From a virus: a stretch of 64,000 nucleotides of DNA. Every line of letters starts with the position of its first letter. Within the stretch, counting starts at the first letter, position 1. The position numbers and the translations under genes are program-made. Shown here piece by piece: positions 12,757 to 22,872 of this stretch. A model generated the notes under the pieces. The model did no database searches, had not been told where the DNA came from, and saw only the letters and a program-made list of their open reading frames with translations. The stretch is taken from the IMG/VR virus record IMGVR_UViG_3300050015_000481, positions 19,399 through 83,398 of that record; one strand, given 5' to 3'.

Positions 12757-15700
12757 ATGGTTAAACTAAAAATATTCGAATTATACAACAATGCCGATGG
12801 AAATGACGATATGCTTTCTGATATCGGTAATGTTGGCATGGAAGTAAGACAAGGCATGTGGACATTTATGCCTGATAGAGTTGGCGATAATAGTCCAGCA
12901 ATTCAAGAAGACGAAAATTTTAAATCTCCACAGGTAGACCAAGGTGTGTTAAAAAATCACGCATATGCCAGAGAATTAGCATATACTTTTGCAAGAAAAA
13001 TTGGCATACAAATAACAAAAGATTTGGGTGGCGGTGGAAATGGACGTGCATTCGAAATTAGTCCAGAAGTTGTGCTAAAATTAACTACCGATGTCAGTGA
13101 AGTAGATGCTGCAATTAAAACGCTTAGAGAAGAACCAAAACATCTTGCTGAGATTTATGGAATTTATAAACTCATTGATACTGAGAAAAATGCATCGTTA
13201 TATGCCATACTTCAAGAGCACATTCAAGAAAAACCATTGGAAAAATTCAGGGAATATAATAAAATAATAAATGCTATTATGCCAAGTGGTCTGGGACTTG
13301 AAGATTTTTTTGGTTTAATGAGATTACCTAAAAAATTTAATTATAGTGATTTAGCTGAAAAAGCAAAATTACTTCTTACAGATACTCCAGAAGCGAACAT
13401 TAATGAACAAGATAGAAAGGAAGCATATAATTATCTTATTGCATTACTTGATATAAGACAGGAATTAATTGATTATGGTATTAAATCAACTGACTATTGG
13501 ACTATTGCAAATCTTGGATATGATAAAGGTATATTAAAATATTTTGATGTCGGTGGATATGTTGCACCAAAACCAGAAATTCCAAAAGATCATGTGGTAA
13601 CGTTGCCTGAAGATGGTAGCGCAAAATTTAGCACAGATAATGGTATTGGTCAAGATGATGAACCACCATATGATAACAATGACACTTCACCCTCAATAGA
13701 AAATGATCTCAATGCAAATTTAAATATGCGTGAAGATTTGGAATACAATCACGTTAGTGATGCAACACAAGATCAATACGAGCTTGATGAAAGACAATTA
13801 TCTTCAATGGCTGGAAGCAGTACTGTTGAAGTTAAACAGAAATGCAGATTAGCTGGAAATGGCAATACTTCAACCGCTTGCAATCAGGGTGATATAAGAA
13901 ATCTGAATATCAAGCCATTGCATGAAAGTGCAAGTCTTAATATACCCGAAAATCTCAGTGGATATGATTCACTTAAAATAATGAATGGTGATCAGACTGT
14001 AGGTGAGGTTGGAATTATGGACAGAGGTGTACATGGTGGAAATCATTATATTGCAATTGACAAAATCTTTATTAATAAGGAATTTAGGGGTAACGATTAT
14101 GCAAATGATGCAATGAAATTGATTTTTGCTTATGCTGATAAAAATAATTTAATTGTTACCTTGACACCAGATAATATCTGGGGTGCAAGTGTACCAAAGT
14201 TAAAAGCATGGTATAAATCACTGGGATTTATTGAAAATAAAGGCAAGAAAAAAGATTTCCAGACTATGCAGTTAATGTATAGATTACCAAAAACTCCTAC
14301 AAATCTCAATGAAGACATTGACCCTAAAACAATTAATACAAACAGAAGGGCAATATATTCCGTAATTACTGGCAAAAGAAAATTGGCATTTGGTGAAGTT
14401 GATAAGCCATTAGGACAGGCAATTGAGAAAAGAGGTTTTGGTATAATACCAGTGAGAATGACTTCACGTCATGGTATGATGAGCATAGTTTATAATAAAG
14501 ATTCATATGAAAATGCAAGAAAACTTTATGAAATAGCTAAGACGCATGGTGATTATCTTACAGATAATACGGCAAGTGAAGCTCGTGAAATAGGTAGATT
14601 ATTAGAATATAAAGAAGAAAGTATTGCAGAATATATAAAACAGAAATATGGTGACAGAGCATTATCTACACATGAAAAATCACCAGAAGACTTCGATGAT
14701 CTTTCTGAAGATATGGATTTTTGGGATTTGAATGATTTAAATGAAGAGAACTTTCCAGCATTCGAAAAACAAATCGAAAAAGATGAAATTACTCACGGTC
14801 TTGATAAAAAAGTTCTTTATGAACAAGATGATTTTAAAGTATGTGTAGTTAATGGCGATGCTGTCAGAGGTAATGGTTTTGATGAATGGGTAGATGGTGG
14901 TCATCATTATGTAGATGCTGATTTACCGAAAGACGAACAAAAATACGCTAAATTTATTCCAGAGGATGAAATTTGGATTGATGACGTATTTTTATCAAAA
15001 CCAAATGATATGGCAGCAATTATACTTCATGAAAAACTCGAAAGATATTTAATGAAGAATTATGGTATTGAATACGAAAATGCACACACAGATTATGCAA
15101 ATAAAGCAGAAGTTGTCTTCAGAAAATTAGTTAAGGATGGTACTGGCTCACTTATAAGCCAGAAAATTTTCGATGCATTTGTAAATAAATTTATACAAGA
15201 CCATTCCGATAAAAAAGTTCATGAAGGAGTAGCAGATGTAGCTGCAGATAAACAGTTTGGTATACAACAACCACATGCGGGTTTTGAAGACAAATTCAAC
15301 AGGGAAGAAAATGAAGAAGATGTAGTCTTTGCTGGTGATACTGATGGTATGATAATAATAAGAAATCCCAAATCATGGAAAAACATATATGGCTATGTTA
15401 GGGGAATTATTGACCCAGAAGGTAATCTTTATATTCAACAAAAACCCGTAGGCATTCACTTTGAAATGCTTGAGGAATTGAATAAATTAGGACTTGTTGA
15501 CAATGAAGCAGATTGGGATGAAAAATTACCAACGAACTTTCTTACAGTACAACGATATTTAAGGTCGAATAAAATTTTACTCGGTGAATCAAACTCACCA
15601 AGATATCCAGAACCAAGAGACCCAAATTCTATGTTTTGGAGCAAAATTCCACCAGTTGAGGTAGCTATCCCATATTATCAGGCTTTCTTAGATAAGGCTA

Positions 15701-17082
15701 AAAAGAAAAATCCCAGCATGGATTTTATTAATGAGATAATAAGTACATATAGGAAACAGCATGAGAATGATGAAACGTTTGGTGGTAATGATTTTAATGA
15801 AAATTTAAAAAATTCTGATAATCATAATGATTTATATGTAGAAAATGTTAACTTTGCAAAAAATGATTCGATGAATGAGAATGAAATAATGTCATTAGAT
15901 GATTTGCCTTTCAAAGATGATGTTGAACGTCAAGGCGGTAAGGTATATAGTGTTGGTGGTGCAGTAAGGGATAAATTTTTAGGTAAAGAATCTAAGGACT
16001 TGGATGTTATTGTTACTGGCATTCCACTTGATAAATTGGAGAGAATCATATCGAGATATGGTGTTGTTAACTCAGTTGGTAAATCATATGGTGTGTTGAA
16101 GTTCAAGCCACGTGGTGCTCCTGAAGACAGTGAAGATATTGATATTGTTATTCCACGTACAGATACCCCAACAGGCGGTGGTGGATATCAGGATTTTGAT
16201 ATTCAATCAGATCATACCATACCACTTGAAAAAGATTTGGAACGTAGGGACTTTACCATTAATGCAATGGCAAGAGATAGAAATGGCGAAATAATTGACC
16301 CTTATGGTGGTCAGGAAGACCTGAAGAATAAAATTATTCGTGCAGTTAATCCCGAAGCATTTAGTGATGACCCACTGAGAATGTTACGTGCTGTGCAATT
16401 TGCATGCCGTTTCGGTTTTACTATTGAGCCACACACAATGAAAATGATCAAAGACAATGTTGCGGAAATCAAACGTATTTCTGCTGAAAGATACTTAATT
16501 GAATTTGATAAGATCATTAAAAAGGGCAATATAGTAATGGGTGTTGAACTACTTATGGAAACAGGCTTGTTTTCACAGATATTTAATGCACAGCCAAAAA
16601 ATGTTACTCCTTTATTTGCCAAAGTTAAGACAATGGCTGAATTTCTTTATTTGCTTATGACTGGTTCTGTAAATAATCCTGCAGAATTCTATTTGGAACA
16701 TTTTGCAAGTGATGAAGATGCAAAAAGAAGTAAGAACTACAAAGAGATTCGTGCACTTGAAACAGGATTTGAAAGCGGTGAAGCAACAAACTTAATCGAA
16801 GCACGTTCAATTGCACATAATATGTATCTTATATTTCCACAAGTGTTGGAAAGCCAGATATTACCAAACATAATCAGGGTTGCATCGCAGGAATTACTTC
16901 AAGGTAAATATCCTAAGACTGTGAATGAATTGGCGGTTAATGGTAATGATTTAATGGAACTTGGTTTACAAGGTAAAGCAGTTGGTGATATGCAAAAATC
17001 ATTATTATTGAAGATTTATTCAAATAAAGTTATGAATAATAAAGAAGATTTACTATCTTTGGCGGGTCAAAATGGAAAATAA
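12757..17082 (+). CDS. Polyvalent protein: kinase-like, GNAT, zincin-like and CCA-adding nucleotidyltransferase parts
   Basis: This is a 1441-residue multi-enzyme chain. Residues about 70-270 look like a protein-kinase fold: glycine-rich loop LGGGGNGRAF near 89-98, VLKLT with the beta-3 Lys, hinge YAILQEH, and YFDVGG in the DFG position. Residues about 390-512 are a GNAT acetyltransferase (FRGNDYANDAM, then AWYKSLGF). Residues about 685-800 resemble a zincin (ILHEKLERYL...AHTDYANKAE). Residues about 1047-1441 are a class II tRNA nucleotidyltransferase/poly(A) polymerase head (SVGGAVRDKFLG, DLDVIV, RRDFTINAMA, DPLRMLRAVQFA). L-x-E or M-N-E motifs fall at 388, 517, 649, 661 and 1039, close to each joint. 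The last 11 bases overlap a homing endonuclease. Confidence 0.85.
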   Translation: MVKLKIFELYNNADGNDDMLSDIGNVGMEVRQGMWTFMPDRVGDNSPAIQEDENFKSPQVDQGVLKNHAYARELAYTFARKIGIQITKDLGGGGNGRAFEISPEVVLKLTTDVSEVDAAIKTLREEPKHLAEIYGIYKLIDTEKNASLYAILQEHIQEKPLEKFREYNKIINAIMPSGLGLEDFFGLMRLPKKFNYSDLAEKAKLLLTDTPEANINEQDRKEAYNYLIALLDIRQELIDYGIKSTDYWTIANLGYDKGILKYFDVGGYVAPKPEIPKDHVVTLPEDGSAKFSTDNGIGQDDEPPYDNNDTSPSIENDLNANLNMREDLEYNHVSDATQDQYELDERQLSSMAGSSTVEVKQKCRLAGNGNTSTACNQGDIRNLNIKPLHESASLNIPENLSGYDSLKIMNGDQTVGEVGIMDRGVHGGNHYIAIDKIFINKEFRGNDYANDAMKLIFAYADKNNLIVTLTPDNIWGASVPKLKAWYKSLGFIENKGKKKDFQTMQLMYRLPKTPTNLNEDIDPKTINTNRRAIYSVITGKRKLAFGEVDKPLGQAIEKRGFGIIPVRMTSRHGMMSIVYNKDSYENARKLYEIAKTHGDYLTDNTASEAREIGRLLEYKEESIAEYIKQKYGDRALSTHEKSPEDFDDLSEDMDFWDLNDLNEENFPAFEKQIEKDEITHGLDKKVLYEQDDFKVCVVNGDAVRGNGFDEWVDGGHHYVDADLPKDEQKYAKFIPEDEIWIDDVFLSKPNDMAAIILHEKLERYLMKNYGIEYENAHTDYANKAEVVFRKLVKDGTGSLISQKIFDAFVNKFIQDHSDKKVHEGVADVAADKQFGIQQPHAGFEDKFNREENEEDVVFAGDTDGMIIIRNPKSWKNIYGYVRGIIDPEGNLYIQQKPVGIHFEMLEELNKLGLVDNEADWDEKLPTNFLTVQRYLRSNKILLGESNSPRYPEPRDPNSMFWSKIPPVEVAIPYYQAFLDKAKKKNPSMDFINEIISTYRKQHENDETFGGNDFNENLKNSDNHNDLYVENVNFAKNDSMNENEIMSLDDLPFKDDVERQGGKVYSVGGAVRDKFLGKESKDLDVIVTGIPLDKLERIISRYGVVNSVGKSYGVLKFKPRGAPEDSEDIDIVIPRTDTPTGGGGYQDFDIQSDHTIPLEKDLERRDFTINAMARDRNGEIIDPYGGQEDLKNKIIRAVNPEAFSDDPLRMLRAVQFACRFGFTIEPHTMKMIKDNVAEIKRISAERYLIEFDKIIKKGNIVMGVELLMETGLFSQIFNAQPKNVTPLFAKVKTMAEFLYLLMTGSVNNPAEFYLEHFASDEDAKRSKNYKEIRALETGFESGEATNLIEARSIAHNMYLIFPQVLESQILPNIIRVASQELLQGKYPKTVNELAVNGNDLMELGLQGKAVGDMQKSLLLKIYSNKVMNNKEDLLSLAGQNGK

Positions 17083-18013
17083 TAGAAAAGAAATATTGAT
17101 TTGTAATGAATGTAATAAAGAATTTAATTCATTAAAAGGATTGAAAAATCATAATAGATACGGATGTAGTACCAAATTACATTCAAATTATTTTAAATAT
17201 TGCCCAATATGTAATGAAATAATACATTATGAAAGTAAAACTAAATATGATTATGCAATTAAAAATGATTCAAAATGCCATAAATGTGGTAATATTGGTA
17301 GAGAAGTGTCTGAAAACACAAAAATTAAAACATCTAAAACATTAAAAGAAAAATATGATAATGGCACACTAATTCCAAACATGATAGGCGCACATTCAAA
17401 TGAATCAAGAAAAAAACAATCTGCAAAGAGAAAGAATTGTAAGTTAACTGAATCGCATAAATTAAATATTTCGATTGGTTTAAATAAATCTGAAAATTTT
17501 AAAATATCCGTACATTCAAAAGAAAGAGGTAATAAAATTTCAAAAAAATTAACAAATAAAAAATTTTCAAAAGAACATATCATTAAACTTTCTGAATCAC
17601 ATGCAAATGTTGCGAACGAAAATAATCCGTTTTATAATAAAAGTCATACTAATGAAGCTAAGAATAAAATGAGAATTAGTGCCATTGAAAGAATTAGATT
17701 AAATAAGTTTGAAAATAATCAAATAGTGCCGTTTTATAACAAAAGAGGTTGTGAATATTTTAATAATCTAATGAAAATCAATAATTGTTTCATACAACAC
17801 GCTGAAAATGGTGGTGAATTTTATATTAAGAAATTAGGATATTTTGTTGATGGATATGACGAAAAAAACAATATTGTTTATGAATGGGATGAAAAACGTC
17901 ATTTTCAAAAAGGTAAATTAATTGAAAGGGATATTATTAGAGAAAATGAAATTACCAATTTACTAAAATGTGCTTTTATTAGAATTAAAGAAAGTGAGGT
18001 AAATAATGATTAA
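17072..18013 (+). CDS. Homing endonuclease, zinc-finger/NUMOD3 plus EDxHD-type nuclease
   Basis: This is a 313-residue mobile nuclease. The N-terminus has paired Cys motifs (CNEC, CPIC, CHKC) expected to bind zinc. The middle is a Lys/Ser/Asn-rich array with NUMOD3-like repeats such as NNPFYNKSHTNEAKNKM near residue 190. The C-terminal domain (about 215-305) contains VDGYDEKNNIVYEWDEKRHF, matching the E-x-D-x-x-x-H core of Vsr-like (PD-(D/E)XK superfamily) homing nucleases. It overlaps both neighbours (11 bases upstream, 8 downstream), so it has fitted itself into an existing operon. The target is unknown. Confidence 0.8.
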   Translation: MENNRKEILICNECNKEFNSLKGLKNHNRYGCSTKLHSNYFKYCPICNEIIHYESKTKYDYAIKNDSKCHKCGNIGREVSENTKIKTSKTLKEKYDNGTLIPNMIGAHSNESRKKQSAKRKNCKLTESHKLNISIGLNKSENFKISVHSKERGNKISKKLTNKKFSKEHIIKLSESHANVANENNPFYNKSHTNEAKNKMRISAIERIRLNKFENNQIVPFYNKRGCEYFNNLMKINNCFIQHAENGGEFYIKKLGYFVDGYDEKNNIVYEWDEKRHFQKGKLIERDIIRENEITNLLKCAFIRIKESEVNND

Positions 18014-18611
18014 GAAAATTATAGTTGAGGAAATTAAAAAATTTTTCTTAAATGAATTTGCTTATCCTGAAATGAGACCAGAAGAAAAGAATACTTGGGA
18101 CATAAATGGAGAAAATGTTGACATTAATTTCTTTGTACATAAATATGATGAATGGAATCATCAGGGTGGTGAAAATAGTGGTTATAAAGACCCTTCAGAA
18201 GCATCAGTGTTAGAATTTATAGAGAATAACTATGAAGATTTTACACATGATGAAAAATTAAAAAAAGAGTTGCTTTGGGCATTGACAGATCGAGAAGTTT
18301 TAAATGAGAATGAATCTAAATATAATAAAGAAAAAGAAGCATTAATGAAATCAAAAAGTATTGATGCTGAAATGAAAGAAAAGATTCTAAAATATTTTAC
18401 TGCTGGTTCAACATATAAAGAAGGTGGACATGTACATGGTTTAAGCAAGCCAAAAGAATTAATGGACAAAACATCTAAAACAGAAGGTGTTAGTATGGGT
18501 GCAGATAAAGACGGATTCTTTGTATATACACATCGTCAAAGGTCTAAGTCATATGAATCACCCGAAAAAATATCAATAAAAGACATTGAATTTACTGAAA
18601 GTACTGGCTAA
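18006..18611 (+). CDS. Hypothetical protein
   Basis: This is a 201-residue acidic protein without a recognised domain. It begins with an amphipathic helix (KKIIVEEIKKFFLNEF), continues with Trp/His-containing segments (YDEWNHQGGENSGY) and ends in a beta-type segment. The N-terminus carries FLNE and the middle VLNE, the L-x-E form. It overlaps the homing endonuclease by 8 bases and abuts the next gene by one base. It was probably the original neighbour of the polyvalent protein before the endonuclease arrived. Confidence 0.65.
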   Translation: MIKKIIVEEIKKFFLNEFAYPEMRPEEKNTWDINGENVDINFFVHKYDEWNHQGGENSGYKDPSEASVLEFIENNYEDFTHDEKLKKELLWALTDREVLNENESKYNKEKEALMKSKSIDAEMKEKILKYFTAGSTYKEGGHVHGLSKPKELMDKTSKTEGVSMGADKDGFFVYTHRQRSKSYESPEKISIKDIEFTESTG

Positions 18612-19267
18612 TGAAAAAAGAAAAATTACTTAAAGAACAACAACGCAATAAATTACTCGAAGATTCGGGCATAAATCTTGTTCAAAATGCAAATTTATTG
18701 TCAATTGATATTCAACCAGAATATCAAAATGCATTTAATTTTCAATTGAGTAATTATATACGATTTTTAAATAGAAATTTTGATACTATGAATTCTCTTA
18801 CATTTTTATATAATGGTGAGAATACTGTTGGTGGCGTAAGTGAAGGAGAATATAAAATGTGGTTAATAGAAAATGGTATTAAAGAATCAATACTTGATTA
18901 TGCCAGATTTTACGATAAAGGTTATGCATTTTTCAGAAGCTGTATGGATGATGGTCATGATGAAAAAGAAATTGTTAACTTAGTAAAATATATGATTAAA
19001 CATGACATTAACGATAGTAGAGACATTGATGAAGAAATGTGGCAAGGTTTTATGACAGAATATGGATATGATTCAAGTGATGTTCGTGATTTTCTTGAAC
19101 CAGCACAGGATTGCATTAATATACCAGATTTAATGGATTACTTACAAAAATTTTCTGGAAAAATAGTTATATGTGGCGGTGGAATAAACCAATGCTTTAA
19201 AGAAGTAGAAATTGCTTTAAATGCATTGGAAAAAATTTATAATGTTTTAACAAAATTTACTTATTAA
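18611..19267 (+). CDS. Hypothetical protein with alpha/beta (Rossmann-like) pattern
   Basis: This is a 218-residue protein. A hydrophobic strand LLSIDIQPEYQNAF near residue 30 and a final strand-turn-helix KIVICGGGINQCFKEV near residue 185 resemble the first and last strands of isochorismatase-like hydrolases, where an Asp after the first strand and a late Cys are catalytic. The similarity is weak: the middle region is different and a catalytic Lys is not placed with certainty. It may equally be a phage-specific Rossmann protein. It is coupled to the upstream gene by a TAATG junction. Confidence 0.55.
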   Translation: MKKEKLLKEQQRNKLLEDSGINLVQNANLLSIDIQPEYQNAFNFQLSNYIRFLNRNFDTMNSLTFLYNGENTVGGVSEGEYKMWLIENGIKESILDYARFYDKGYAFFRSCMDDGHDEKEIVNLVKYMIKHDINDSRDIDEEMWQGFMTEYGYDSSDVRDFLEPAQDCINIPDLMDYLQKFSGKIVICGGGINQCFKEVEIALNALEKIYNVLTKFTY

Positions 19268-19307
19268 TTTTATTATTGTATAAGTGTGAGTTACTAAATC
19301 CTATAAA

Positions 19308-19316
19308 GTATTTATT
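19308..19316 (+). promoter_or_regulatory. GTATTTATW motif abutting a start codon
   Basis: GTATTTATT is followed at once by ATG at 19317. If the motif is a -10 element, that first ATG would be at or upstream of the transcript start, which favours the in-frame ATG at 19353. Confidence 0.5.
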
Positions 19317-19460
19317 ATGAAAAGCAAAGACAAAACAAAAACAGTTACACCAATGGATGTAGCAAGATTTGTTGGTGCTGAAAAAGACTATCAAGATGTT
19401 TTAAATAAGAATAGGGGTGCTTTGGTTGAAAATTTTTATAGCTTATTGAAAAAATTATGA
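19317..19460 (+). CDS. Small protein of 47 (or 35) residues
   Basis: This is a short frame ending in ATGA shared with the next gene, a typical translational-coupling junction, which supports it being real. From 19317 it encodes 47 residues; from the in-frame ATG at 19353 it encodes 35, beginning MDVARFVGAEKDYQDVLN. The shorter form fits better with the promoter motif directly upstream. It is helical and charged, with no known family. It may be a small partner of the downstream 2H phosphoesterase. Confidence 0.55.
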   Translation: MKSKDKTKTVTPMDVARFVGAEKDYQDVLNKNRGALVENFYSLLKKL

Positions 19461-19840
19461 GTAATATTTCTTATAGTGCAGTAGTTCTTGATGAAAGTTC
19501 AAGAAACCGATTAATCAGAAGATTCGAGTCATTAATACCCGAAGGCTGGGAAGTTGTTGCACATCATGCCACAATAAAGTTGGGCGAACTTGACCCAAAT
19601 GAAAAATGGATGATTAATGAAGAAATTACATTGAGTGTAAATGATTTTGCAATGGATGATAAGGTTATGGCAGTTGGTGTTAGTGGCTCTGAAAGCCACA
19701 ATGCCAAGCCACATATAACCATTGCTGTAAATCGACAAGCGGGTGGTAAACCAATGATGTCGAATAAATTAATTGACTGGAAAAAAATAAGAGTTCCCTT
19801 GGTGATAAGAGGAATCGTGACTGAAGTTGAATATAAGTAA
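19457..19840 (+). CDS. 2H phosphoesterase (LigT/CPDase-like)
   Basis: This 127-residue protein has the two hallmark H-x-T motifs of the 2H superfamily: H37-A-T39 in HHATIKL and H86-I-T88 in KPHITIAV. These enzymes open 2',3'-cyclic phosphates, ligate 2'-5' RNA ends or cut cyclic oligonucleotides; T4 Acb1, which degrades CBASS signals, belongs to the same fold. It starts within the ATGA end of the small upstream gene and is followed 1 base later by a PD-(D/E)XK-like gene and then the HAD gene remnant, forming an RNA-end-processing set. Whether it acts on RNA ends or on defence signals cannot be told. Confidence 0.8.
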   Translation: MSNISYSAVVLDESSRNRLIRRFESLIPEGWEVVAHHATIKLGELDPNEKWMINEEITLSVNDFAMDDKVMAVGVSGSESHNAKPHITIAVNRQAGGKPMMSNKLIDWKKIRVPLVIRGIVTEVEYK

Positions 19841-19841
19841 A

Positions 19842-20438
19842 ATGAGTAATGATGAGTATGTTGCAAAAAAACAGCAAAAAGATTTTGAAGAAGGTAAAAA
19901 ACCACAAAAATTATTCGCAGATTTAATGCAGAAGAACGGGTTTCGCTGTTATAGCGCAACCAGTTATCAAGATAAATATGAACATTGGGATATCCTGACT
20001 GTTGAAGACCTTGGAAATGGTACGAAAGTTTTTGAACGTTCGGACATAAAAGGTCTAAAGAACTGTGTAAAAGAAGGTTTCGAATGGATGGAATTACAAA
20101 CAATCGATGGAAGAATGGGTTGGTTGTATTCGGAATTTACAGATAATATAATATTTGAAATTGAAGATTGCTTTCTTTTCATAAAAAGAGCAGAATTACT
20201 TCCAATCATTGTAGCAAATGTAGCAAAGATGGACAAATTGGATGAAGAAGATGGGGAACGTCCACCAGTAGTTCATGTGATAAAAGACGGTCTTAAATAT
20301 TATCAGAGGTACTGTAGAATATTGTGGGGTAATACAGATATAACTGTTATGTCACCATTTACGGATTTTCAGCATTTAATTTATATGAAACTATATAAAG
20401 CAGACGGTAAAATAGAAAAATTTAATAGAAAACAATGA
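19842..20438 (+). CDS. PD-(D/E)XK nuclease-like protein
   Basis: This is a protein of about 198 residues. ATG at 19842 is used rather than an upstream TTG because it follows the previous stop by one base. Residues about 35-75 show the likely PD-(D/E)XK core: an Asp in EHWDILTV and, about 20 residues later, SDIKGLK (the D-x-K pair), followed by a WMELQT strand and GWLYSEF. This pattern occurs in phage nucleases and Holliday-junction-type enzymes. It ends in ATGA shared with the remnant start of the HAD gene, showing that it was once directly coupled to that gene. Assignment is by motif only. Confidence 0.6.
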   Translation: MSNDEYVAKKQQKDFEEGKKPQKLFADLMQKNGFRCYSATSYQDKYEHWDILTVEDLGNGTKVFERSDIKGLKNCVKEGFEWMELQTIDGRMGWLYSEFTDNIIFEIEDCFLFIKRAELLPIIVANVAKMDKLDEEDGERPPVVHVIKDGLKYYQRYCRILWGNTDITVMSPFTDFQHLIYMKLYKADGKIEKFNRKQ

Positions 20439-20458
20439 AAAGATTGGCAGTATTTGAT
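20435..20458 (+). pseudogene. Orphaned 5' end of the HAD phosphatase gene
   Basis: ATG at 20435 overlaps the upstream stop as ATGA and reads MKRLAVFD, then runs into the reverse complement of the homing endonuclease. MKRLAVFD is nearly identical to residues 11-17 (KRLSVFD) of the intact HAD protein that starts at 21517. It therefore marks the original start of that gene, cut off after eight codons by the insertion. Confidence 0.75.
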
Positions 20459-21468
20459 TATATGTACTTAAAAGAATATCCTTTACAATGTTTTCTATCC
20501 CCCCTAGTAACTCTTTGTATACTTTCATATTTTACATTAATTTTATTGGATGCTTCATGTATATTATTAAATGTTTTAATATAATTATTTGATATATAAT
20601 CATACATTTCTATTTTACGTAAATTTGGGGTTCTATCATACGTTCCTATTTTATATTCTTTAAGTGTTTGGAATAAATTATATTTTCTTGTAAGTCTAAG
20701 ATTTTCGGAATCTTCGTAAATATTATTTTTTAATATTAAAAGGTCTTTATATGAATTATATTTTAGTACTACAAGCCTATTATTATTTGAAGAATATTTG
20801 GTGATACTTACTTTAGTGTTTGATAAACCATATAAATTAAAACTTTTCTTTATCTCAGTAATTAAATTTTCTGAACCGATAATTGAAAAACATAATGCAC
20901 CATTCTTTCTCTTTTTTTCTTTATTAATTGATCCATCCCCATCGAAAACACCACGTATGAAGTGCCAAAAATATTCTTGAGGTATGTCAGGCATTATACA
21001 ATTAAATGACTTATTTGAGTGAACACCTAATTTATTGAGATCATTAACAATTTCTTTAGATGCTATTTGTAGAGAATAGCGTGTATATGTTTTATTGGTT
21101 CTTTTATCAAAGACATTATATTTGGCTAATTTATGCTCGGATTTAATTTCCCTTTTTAACATATCAACTAACTCGATGTCTCTTGAAGTTAAAACTAACT
21201 TATATCGGTTATCAACATATCCATCAGATATAATCAAGCCCAATAAATATGCTTTATTTTTAGCATTAATAATTTTGAAAAATTCGGTATTAATTTTATA
21301 TCTTCTATTATTACCGTCATGTGATTTATTGTTTATTGTGTATCCATGCTTTTTTAATTGATATTTAATGGTTGAATACGAAACATTAATAATTTTTGAA
21401 ATTTTTGTTATTGTATAATTTTCATTAAAATAATAATGAGCAATTTGATTAATATCATATTTATTCAT
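20458..21468 (-). CDS. LAGLIDADG homing endonuclease inserted in the HAD gene
   Basis: This is a 336-residue protein on the minus strand. The start is set at 21468 (MNKYDINQ) because an upstream extension would run through the promoter motif. An N-terminal helix-turn-helix (TITKISKIINVSYSTIKYQL) is followed by two LAGLIDADG helices: AYLLGLIISDG near 73-83 and FIRGVFDGDGS near 170-180, each with an acidic catalytic residue. A C-terminal segment (KTFNNIHEASNKINVKYESI) resembles NUMOD1. Its stop codon lies at the exact break in the HAD gene. The two motif copies suggest a monomeric two-domain enzyme. Confidence 0.9.
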   Translation of the reverse strand: MNKYDINQIAHYYFNENYTITKISKIINVSYSTIKYQLKKHGYTINNKSHDGNNRRYKINTEFFKIINAKNKAYLLGLIISDGYVDNRYKLVLTSRDIELVDMLKREIKSEHKLAKYNVFDKRTNKTYTRYSLQIASKEIVNDLNKLGVHSNKSFNCIMPDIPQEYFWHFIRGVFDGDGSINKEKKRKNGALCFSIIGSENLITEIKKSFNLYGLSNTKVSITKYSSNNNRLVVLKYNSYKDLLILKNNIYEDSENLRLTRKYNLFQTLKEYKIGTYDRTPNLRKIEMYDYISNNYIKTFNNIHEASNKINVKYESIQRVTRGDRKHCKGYSFKYI

Positions 21469-21474
21469 ATCTTT

Positions 21475-21491
21475 GTATTTATAATAAATAC
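21475..21491. promoter_or_regulatory. Divergent, palindromic pair of GTATTTATW motifs
   Basis: GTATTTATAATAAATAC reads as GTATTTATA on the plus strand (serving the HAD gene at 21517) and GTATTTATT on the minus strand (serving the LAGLIDADG gene, start 6 bases away). It is palindromic except for the centre base. The inserted element appears to have brought a two-way promoter. Confidence 0.6.
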
Positions 21492-21516
21492 TTATAATTT
21501 CGAATAATATAACCTT

Positions 21517-22113
21517 ATGACTACGGAAAAACACAAAAATACAATTAAACGCCTCAGTGTCTTTGATCTGGATGCGACAATTCTTGACACTCCAACACCA
21601 GAAGAAGGAAAAAAAATATGGGAAAAATATTACAAAAAGCCATTTTCATATAAGGGTTGGTGGAGTAAGCCAGAGAGCCTTGATACTGAAGTATTCGATA
21701 TTAAACCTTTTCCAGCAGTTCTGGCAGAACTTAATAAAGAAAAAGCAACACCTGACACTGCTGTTATTATCTTAACATCAAGAGTGGAAAGATTACGTCC
21801 ACAGGTTGAGAACGTGCTTAAACTCAATAATATTTCCGTAGATGATGTTCTATTGAAAAATAGTAATGAAGATAAGGGTGATATTATTTTAAAAATCTCA
21901 GTTTATAATCCAGACCTTCGAGAAATCGTAGTGTATGATGACTTTATGGAAAAAAATGAAGCTAAGATTCAGGAATATACGAAAATCATCGGTGAATTAT
22001 CACCAGAGATTCAATATACTTTGTATTATGTTGACAACGGTAGGATTACTTTACTGGAATCCACTAATATAATATTGAAAATGATATCAGATGAAATTCG
22101 AAAATTAATTTAA
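21517..22113 (+). CDS. HAD phosphatase of the RNA-repair (SAK) type
   Basis: This is a 198-residue haloacid-dehalogenase-fold protein. Motif I is D17-L-D19-A-T21, followed by the TPTP and GWWSKPESL segments typical of the HAD family found in Swiss-Army-knife RNA-repair proteins. Motif II is LTSR near 86-89, and an acidic motif IV (VVYDDF) lies near residue 139. It likely removes phosphates from nucleic-acid ends. The first ten residues replace the original start, and codons for KRLSVFD are recoded relative to the remnant at 20435. Expression now depends on the GTATTTATA site at 21475 instead of coupling to the upstream gene. Confidence 0.8.
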   Translation: MTTEKHKNTIKRLSVFDLDATILDTPTPEEGKKIWEKYYKKPFSYKGWWSKPESLDTEVFDIKPFPAVLAELNKEKATPDTAVIILTSRVERLRPQVENVLKLNNISVDDVLLKNSNEDKGDIILKISVYNPDLREIVVYDDFMEKNEAKIQEYTKIIGELSPEIQYTLYYVDNGRITLLESTNIILKMISDEIRKLI

Positions 22114-22137: not shown

Positions 22138-22872
22138 ATGGGACTATGCTCAAATAAGGAAAAATTTATTATTGCTGCACAAATAAAGCATAATAGCAAA
22201 TATGACTATTCCAAAGTAGTATATGTTGGTAACAAAGATAAAATAACAATTATTTGTCCTAAACATGGTGAATTTTCACAGAGACCAAATGATCATTTAA
22301 CTGGATATGGCTGTAAGAAATGCCAATACGAAAAAATCTCAAAAGAAAATAAATTTACAAATAATATTTTTATTGAAAAGGCAAATAAAAAACATAATAA
22401 TACATATGATTATTCATTAGTTAAATATAATGGATATGAAAATAAAATTACTATTATTTGTAAAAAGCATGGTGAGTTTAATCAATCGCCACATGCACAT
22501 TTGGGTGGCGCAGGATGCCCTAAATGTAAAGAATCTTTTGGTGAGAAAAAAATTGCAGAAATCTTATTAAAATATAATATTCAATTTGAAAGAGAGAAAA
22601 CATTTAAAGATTTAAAATACAGAGCTAACTTATATTATGATTTTTATTTACCAAATCATAAAGTATTTATTGAATATCATGGAATACAACATTTTGCGCC
22701 AGTAAAATTTTTTGGCGGTAAAAATGCGCTTATTGAAACAAGAAAACGTGATATAATTAAATTGAAGTATGCTATAAATAATAATTATTTGTTAATTTCA
22801 TTATATAATATTCCAATAAAACATATGGATGAATTATTAACGAAAGCATTAAACTATAAATCAATAATATGA
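22138..22872 (+). CDS. Homing endonuclease with DUF723 repeats and PD-(D/E)XK domain
   Basis: This 244-residue protein is built from two ~60-residue DUF723-like zinc modules. Each has the pattern H-N-x-x-Y-D-Y-S followed by ITIIC-x-x-HGEF, then a Pro/His segment and a C-x-K-C pair, and probably reads DNA. The C-terminal nuclease has YYDFYLPNHKVFIEYHGIQH, the D-x(n)-E-x-x-G-x-Q-H core of Vsr-like PD-(D/E)XK enzymes. It is homologous to the proteins at 42290 and 58662. Its last codons overlap the ParB-like gene as ATGA, so it has merged into the operon without breaking it. Confidence 0.82.
   Translation: MGLCSNKEKFIIAAQIKHNSKYDYSKVVYVGNKDKITIICPKHGEFSQRPNDHLTGYGCKKCQYEKISKENKFTNNIFIEKANKKHNNTYDYSLVKYNGYENKITIICKKHGEFNQSPHAHLGGAGCPKCKESFGEKKIAEILLKYNIQFEREKTFKDLKYRANLYYDFYLPNHKVFIEYHGIQHFAPVKFFGGKNALIETRKRDIIKLKYAINNNYLLISLYNIPIKHMDELLTKALNYKSII

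What the first reader, a model, noticed from the sequence alone, without database searches (positions are those of the whole stretch)
20435..21580. Homing endonuclease split a gene, leaving a start remnant and a recoded replacement 5' end
Seen: ATG at 20435 (ATGA overlap with the upstream stop) encodes MKRLAVFD, then meets the stop codon of the minus-strand LAGLIDADG gene. On the far side the HAD gene restarts as MTTEKHKNTIKRLSVFDLD. The shared segment K-R-L-(A/S)-V-F-D uses different codons in the two copies (AGA/CGC, TTG/CTC, GTA/GTC). Inference: the element inserted after codon 8 and the host gene was rescued by a duplicated 5' end with changed DNA, which would also make it resistant to cutting. 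This would be a way for a free-standing homing gene to enter a coding sequence without killing it.
Basis: partly seen in the sequence, partly recalled or inferred. Interest (0 to 1): 0.72.

Follow-up and report, generated by a model that had tools for sequence, protein, structure and literature searches.

The report
Homing gene carrying a replacement start
In a family of large phages, a selfish DNA-cutting gene has repeatedly inserted itself just inside the start of an RNA-repair-type phosphatase gene, apparently without destroying it, because it brings a new start codon and a rewritten beginning of the gene that its own enzyme probably can no longer cut.

Summary
ATG 20435 (overlapping the upstream stop) encodes MKRLAVFD, then a minus-strand LAGLIDADG gene (20458-21468) follows, and the HAD phosphatase restarts at 21517 with a differently encoded KRLSVFD. 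Relatives show a recurrent arrangement. HEG-less relatives start the HAD gene as M-K-R-L-A-V-F-D-F-D right after the upstream gene. HEG carriers, and phages with HEG fragments or no HEG left, share a short DNA segment (TATGAYTACGRAAAA) on the HEG side of the HAD gene, which supplies its start codon in most of them. On the HAD-body tree these segment-bearing alleles are scattered (9 changes; shuffled mean 9.2), so the segment was probably gained repeatedly. In all 10, the next codons avoid AGA-TTR (0/10 against 18/36), while the rest of the gene keeps ordinary codon use. Stranded start remnants in four phages keep AGA-TTR and end at the same point, codon FD of the catalytic motif. I read this as a homing element with a recoded rescue 5' end. 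The nearest known case is fungal mitochondrial mobile ORFs that carry replacement gene 3' ends. Cleavage and resistance are inferred, not shown.

The parts
19842..20438 (+). upstream nuclease-like gene (198 aa; conserved YQDKYEHWD...D(V/I)KG motif); its stop overlaps the remnant start (ATGA)
   Evidence: relatives L091 (64%), L008, L054, L043 have the HAD gene directly after it
20435..20458 (+). stranded start remnant of a HAD gene: MKRLAVFD, with AGA TTG GCA GTA TTT GA as in HEG-less alleles
   Evidence: same end point in L082, L015, L008
20458..21468 (-). LAGLIDADG homing endonuclease gene, two motifs (LGLIISDGY, FIRGVFDGDG), HTH at the N-terminus and NUMOD/I-HmuI-like C-terminus; ATG at 21468
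   Evidence: only copy in the held record
21515..21546 (+). element-linked replacement segment (RS): TTATGACTACGGAAAAACACAAAAATACAATT; gives the new HAD start codon (ATG 21517) and a disordered N-terminal tail
   Evidence: near-identical core in 10 scattered HAD alleles and beside the HEG of L123 at another locus
21550..21564 (+). recoded tract, codons 12-16 (CGC CTC AGT GTC TTT), rebuilding strand beta-1 of the phosphatase
21565..21573 (+). HAD motif I (D17-L-D19), the catalytic aspartates; remnants end at the equivalent place, the inferred cut/insertion region
21517..22113 (+). HAD phosphatase gene (198 aa), RNA-repair type
   Evidence: PF10307, E 1e-4, below its cut-off; phrog_415 polynucleotide kinase
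20450..20460 (+). left copy of a short imperfect direct repeat flanking the HEG (GTATTTGATTA); the right copy TTATGACTA is at 21515-21523
   Evidence: a single copy in HEG-less L008 (GTATATGATTACG)

Best explanation
This is a free-standing LAGLIDADG homing element that targets the catalytic-motif codons at the start of a phage HAD phosphatase gene and carries its own rescue. Proposed cycle: (1) the endonuclease cuts HEG-less alleles at about AGATTRGCAGTATTTGA/TTTTGATGG (inferred from remnants that end there). (2) The break is repaired from a HEG-bearing genome, so the old start (MKRLAVFD) is stranded on the left. The HEG, the RS segment and a divergent copy of codons 11 to about 26 are copied in on the right. 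(3) RS or its surroundings supply a new start codon and the copied codons rebuild beta-1, so the HAD reading frame stays intact. (4) The copied codons differ from the target, so the carrier is probably not cut by its own enzyme. (5) HEGs later decay or are deleted, leaving RS-bearing scars. Shown here: the architecture, its recurrence, the scattered distribution of RS and the local recoding. Inferred: cutting, repair route, resistance, direction gain-then-loss, and that the rescued protein works.
For: Carriers at the same site: window/L001, L077 (HEG 62%), L082 (61%) and L090 (47%); HEG fragments in L015 and L018. Left remnants: MKRLAVFD (window), MKKRLVAFE (L082), MTKIKRLIAFDF (L015), MKRLAVYD (L008), each starting at the end of the upstream gene and ending at the FD codons (null fractions 0.0014-0.0043). 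HEG-less short-start alleles look like the remnants. RS+ needs 9 changes on a HAD tree built without codons 11-22, shuffled mean 9.2. Recoding: AGA-TTR 0/10 RS+ vs 18/36 RS- (Fisher p=0.0036); 15-nt distance to consensus 7.5 vs 3.5 (MWU p=2e-5). Leu13 is CTN in 10/10 (p=4e-5 against those genes' own usage). A/T at third position 54% vs 78% in the same gene bodies (p=1e-4). Synonymous mismatch in the rest of the gene is about equal, 37% vs 35%. RS-like DNA also lies beside the HEG of L123 at another locus. The model puts the RS-coded tail in disorder and codons 12-16 in beta-1. The rescued frame is open in all carriers.
Against: L077 and L090 have no recognisable KRL remnant. Four RS+ alleles have no HEG and could be pre-insertion targets rather than scars; in L002, L057 and L062 the trace upstream is short, lacks a start codon, and the one in L062 is not significant by itself. 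RS+ alleles were grouped by eye from the upstream DNA, and the codon statistics treat partly related alleles as independent; on starred branches only 5 independent pairs exist (all in the expected direction or tied, sign test not significant). Motif I and codons 17-21 are not clearly recoded. Divergence is also raised at codons 22-26, which fits import from a divergent donor as well as selection against cutting. Cleavage has not been tested.
Confidence: 0.68

Rival explanations
1. RS is the natural, older start region of some HAD alleles and is simply the homing site. The HEG inserts beside the start codon of such alleles; L008, L002, L057 and L062 are empty targets. The KRLAVFD piece is an old tandem duplication of the gene's start, present before the HEG.
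For: L008 reads through in frame, MKRLAVYDYEKNLYI-MKRLSVFDFDG, with no HEG, and its junction is one copy of the repeat that flanks the HEG in the window. RS without HEG occurs four times.
Against: RS+ alleles sit singly among short-start alleles on the HAD tree, which would need many losses or repeated gains of near-identical DNA. HEG loss with a retained long start is seen directly in L015 and L018. RS-like DNA occurs beside the L123 HEG at a non-HAD locus. It does not explain codon avoidance.
Confidence: 0.17
2. Ordinary intergenic HEG upstream of HAD; allele exchange between divergent phages joined an old HAD start to a foreign HEG+HAD cassette. The codon differences are only divergence plus relaxed selection, because the KRL codons are no longer next to the start codon.
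For: The window HAD belongs to a different class from that of its nearest backbone relatives. Short-start alleles are A/T-rich near the start, as expected for initiation regions. Excess divergence also covers codons 22-26.
Against: Relaxation would bring codons to the body average, but third-position A/T in the tract (54%) is below the body (78%, p=1e-4) and Leu13 is CTN in 10/10. L077 starts right before KRL and is still recoded. Remnants end at the same codon behind different upstream genes.
Confidence: 0.12
3. A self-splicing intron joins MKRLAVFD to the HAD frame at the LDAT codons.
For: MKRLAVFD + LDATILD would restore the protein sequence.
Against: No group I or II intron found in window or relatives. 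The HEG lies on the opposite strand. The downstream gene has its own start and full motif. L082's remnant has decayed to a stop (FE-stop).
Confidence: 0.02
4. The MKRLAVFD stretch is a chance match.
For: It is only eight codons.
Against: Null fraction 0.0014 for the window, and three further phages have one at the same place.
Confidence: 0.01

Closest known systems
Fungal mitochondrial mobile ORFs with a replacement gene end (Allomyces atp6; Glomus atp6, atp9, cox2, nad3: Beaudet et al. 2013, PMC3630166)
   Same: An endonuclease gene splits a gene and brings a divergent copy of the lost end; the old end is left stranded; the foreign end is related to other species' alleles.
   Different: There the replaced part is the 3' end (C-terminus). 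Here it is the 5' end, so the element must also bring a start codon, and it is in phages with the HEG on the opposite strand.
Split phage genes made by homing endonucleases (mobE in nrdA of Aeh1, mobA in T4 topoisomerase; reviewed in PMC2988022)
   Same: Free-standing phage homing gene inside a coding sequence.
   Different: There both halves are translated and reassemble. Here the 5' piece is abandoned and the downstream gene is completed.
Intronless homing of T4 seg/mob endonucleases (PMC2988022)
   Same: Free-standing HEG, repair from the HEG+ genome with flanking DNA copied along.
   Different: T4 enzymes mostly sit between genes and cut at a distance. Here the inferred cut lies at the insertion point within the gene.
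Engineered home-and-rescue gene drives (PMC7968924)
   Same: Logic of a homing nuclease linked to a rescue copy of its target that it cannot cut.
   Different: Engineered with Cas9 in flies. Analogy of logic only, no relation.

Membership tests
LAGLIDADG homing endonuclease (free-standing) | two LAGLIDADG motifs with acidic residues | tested here: met
   LGLIISDGY and FIRGVFDGDG, conserved in L077, L082, L090; Pfam LAGLIDADG_3 E 6.5e-9; phrog_4645 endonuclease E 7e-47
LAGLIDADG homing endonuclease (free-standing) | no intron or intein around it | tested here: met
   no Rfam intron; own ORF, opposite strand to HAD
LAGLIDADG homing endonuclease (free-standing) | site-specific cleavage of HEG-less alleles and homing | not testable with these tools
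   needs enzyme and mixed infection
Mobile ORF with replacement gene end (mitochondrial type) | old gene end stranded on the far side of the endonuclease gene | tested here: met
   remnants in window, L082, L015; L008 without HEG
Mobile ORF with replacement gene end (mitochondrial type) | replacement end is divergent from the native one | tested here: met
Mobile ORF with replacement gene end (mitochondrial type) | replaced end is the C-terminal (3') end | tested here: not met
   it is the 5' end; hence works like, but is not filed as a member of, the mitochondrial type
Mobile ORF with replacement gene end (mitochondrial type) | hybrid gene expressed as mRNA | not testable with these tools
   no RNA data
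Gene-in-pieces (mobE/nrdA type) | both halves translated and needed | tested here: not met
   downstream HAD contains the complete domain including beta-1 and motif I; the 5' piece is 8 codons and has decayed in L082 and L002
HAD phosphatase, RNA-repair type | DxD motif I and Rossmann-like core | tested here: met
   D17, D19 invariant; model pLDDT 90.8; best folds HAD enzymes including Pnkp1, TM 0.45-0.5. Substrate not tested; PF10307 score below its cut-off

The most novel reading that the evidence does not exclude
A natural 'cut and rescue' drive in phages: a homing element that attacks an enzyme's catalytic codons and each time supplies a new start codon plus an independently recoded, uncuttable 5' end of the target gene. 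The recoding arises anew at each acquisition, because it is selected by the enzyme's own cutting.
Probability: 0.4. Interest if true: 0.82.

Novelty: new variant of a known kind. Interest (0 to 1): 0.63.

Why it matters
Free-standing homing genes are thought to avoid coding sequence, or to need introns, inteins or lucky gene splits. This is a set of natural cases in which such a gene sits inside a gene's most conserved codons and the gene is completed by a recoded 5' end. It extends the replacement-end trick known from fungal mitochondria to phages and to the 5' end. It is a natural counterpart of the recoded-rescue design of engineered gene drives. The claim can be tested directly with one enzyme and a few short DNA duplexes.

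Tried and rejected
A plain first reading, that L002's long start without HEG refutes the idea: set aside after L015/L018 showed HEG fragments with the same long start and the tree showed scattered gains. DNA-level comparison of left and right copies: no similarity, so recent duplication was rejected. A proposed duplicated junction at the second HEG site (L123): not significant (p 0.36), kept only as a lead. RS as a diverged copy of codons DFDGT (L008 reads like a 15-codon tandem repeat): suggestive, not provable. A pattern scan for more RS alleles gave only known loci and one chance hit in a tape-measure-like gene (L134). A genome-contig search with A1 failed for lack of conserved stretches. 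Introns: none. Solved-structure sequence search for the HAD: none. The split glycosyltransferase genes in L014/L037, first suspected to show the same trick, hold in-frame intein-like inserts instead.

Full report
What is in the window. The window is part of an 83-kb virus record whose relatives are contigs of large phages, up to about 365 kb. Gene order here is: 2H phosphoesterase (19457-19840), nuclease-like gene (19842-20438), a start codon overlapping its stop that gives MKRLAVFD (20435-20458), a minus-strand LAGLIDADG gene (20458-21468), HAD phosphatase (21517-22113), a treble-clef/DUF723 gene (22138-22872), and a ParB-like gene.

Relatives without the homing gene. Most HAD alleles start directly after the upstream gene, whichever gene that is, as M-(K/I)-(K/T)-R-L-x-x-F-D-F-D-G or close to it. 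Examples behind the same nuclease-like gene are L054, L043, L030 and L091. Their DNA is commonly close to AAAAGATTAGCAGTATTTGATTTTGATGGA, which matches the window's stranded remnant AAAAGATTGGCAGTATTTGA.

Relatives with the homing gene at this site. L082 (HEG 61%), L077 (62%) and L090 (47%) have it, in the same orientation, just upstream of HAD. L015 and L018 keep only its first dozen to two dozen codons. Left of the HEG, L082 has ATGA + MKKRLVAFE-stop and L015 has MTKIKRLIAFDF, behind three different upstream genes counting the window; all end at the FD codons of motif I. L008 has MKRLAVYD but no HEG. L077 and L090 have no clear remnant; the L090 HEG is also truncated at its C-terminus.

The segment on the right. 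Between HEG and HAD, and in four HEG-less alleles (L002, L008, L057, L062), lies a conserved DNA stretch, TATGAYTACGRAAAA, then a short stretch (16-28 nt counted from GAY) to the KRL codons. In six or more phages its ATG is the HAD start. In L077 and L082 it is present in a looser form but another ATG is used, so it is conserved as DNA rather than only as a start. In all loci held the tight form of the motif occurs only at such HAD starts and beside the HEG of L123, a HEG at another locus. A looser form has a few chance copies. This links the segment to the element.

Tree test. On a HAD tree built without codons 11-22, the ten segment-bearing alleles need 9 changes, as many as shuffled labels (mean 9.2; starred branches alone force 5). 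So the segment was probably gained many times, in both main HAD classes, while the HAD bodies stay with their local relatives. In the window the HAD body itself is of a different class from that of its nearest relatives by glycosyltransferase (L012, 91%), so here the whole cassette seems imported.

Recoding. In segment-bearing alleles the codons right after the segment depart from the common form: AGA-TTR in 0 of 10, against 18 of 36 others. Mean distance over 15 nt is 7.5 against 3.5 (p=2e-5), and third positions are 54% A/T against 87%. The alleles differ from one another as well. Elsewhere in the gene synonymous mismatch is about the same in both groups, 37% and 35%. Loss of the initiation-region bias does not explain it, because the tract is less A/T-rich than the bodies of the same genes (54% vs 78%, p=1e-4) and Leu13 is CTN in 10 of 10 (p=4e-5). 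In nearest-neighbour comparison the excess divergence lies at codons 12-16 and 22-26, either side of the conserved motif. These statistics treat alleles as independent; the strict paired test on well-supported branches has only 5 pairs, none in the wrong direction, and is not significant.

Structure. The model of the window HAD (pLDDT 90.8) has residues 1-7 disordered, residues 12-16 as strand beta-1, and the catalytic D17/D19 just after. The break at codon 8 therefore removes beta-1 and the recoded tract rebuilds it, while the segment codes for a loose tail. Structural neighbours are HAD phosphatases, including Pnkp1 of an RNA-repair complex, at modest TM scores.

Reading. The best account is a homing element that hits the catalytic-motif codons and is inherited together with a replacement 5' end that the enzyme probably cannot cut. 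It is supported by recurrence, scatter and local recoding. The cutting itself is inferred. The main rival is that the segment-bearing start is older and is the target; L008, which reads in frame through remnant and segment without HEG, is its best evidence. I consider L008, L002, L057 and L062 more likely scars, because L015 and L018 are visible intermediates and because near-identical segments would otherwise have to arise repeatedly.

Known relatives of the idea. In Allomyces and Glomus mitochondria, endonuclease ORFs carry replacement C-terminal gene ends, with the native end stranded and divergent (PMC3630166). In T4-like phages, mobE and mobA split genes whose halves reassemble (PMC2988022). 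I found no report of a phage or 5'-end version in the six literature searches made, but the library holds open-licence papers only.

Noticed in passing
L123:3507-4511 (also L124, L125, L127): A 60% identical HEG sits at another place, between parts of the large multidomain polyprotein gene, again opposite in strand, with an RS-like TATAATTACGGAAAAA upstream of its start; the right-hand gene restarts with MRKQINES where the left part ends in HKKKIN. May be a second site with the same trick; flank similarity was not significant.
   Followed up: partly
L014:7311-9758 and L037:7325-9760: The glycosyltransferase gene holds an in-frame intein-like insert of about 350 residues (starts CYDD, ends WCGN/S) at the same site in both phages; the window copy lacks it.
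   Followed up: partly
window 17072-18013 and 22138-22872: Two more mobile-looking genes (zinc finger + NUMOD3; DUF723/treble-clef) beside the same gene cluster; the second is present or absent between HAD and ParB in relatives (77% in L012, absent in L002).
   Followed up: no
window 12757-22113: RNA-repair-like cluster: poly(A)/CCA polymerase domain in a 1441-aa polyprotein, 2H phosphoesterase, HAD phosphatase; in relatives (L002, L018) the 2H domain is fused to the polymerase.
   Followed up: no
window 21565-21579 and L077, L082, L090: All four alleles with an intact or nearly intact HEG have an unusual residue in motif I (DLDAT, DLDAT, DFDQC, DFDDT instead of DFDGT), unlike most HEG-less alleles; may also reduce cutting.
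   Followed up: partly
L002:4001-4948, L015, L077, L090: Some HAD proteins are about 300 aa with an extra C-terminal domain (YVYHGTYDGA...SFTSKP...YYAEMKGG, possibly ADP-ribosyltransferase-like by eye); the window HAD (198 aa) lacks it.
   Followed up: no
window 21475-21483 (-): TATAAATAC, like the T4 late-promoter consensus, lies about 7 nt upstream of the HEG start ATG; also in L077.
   Followed up: no
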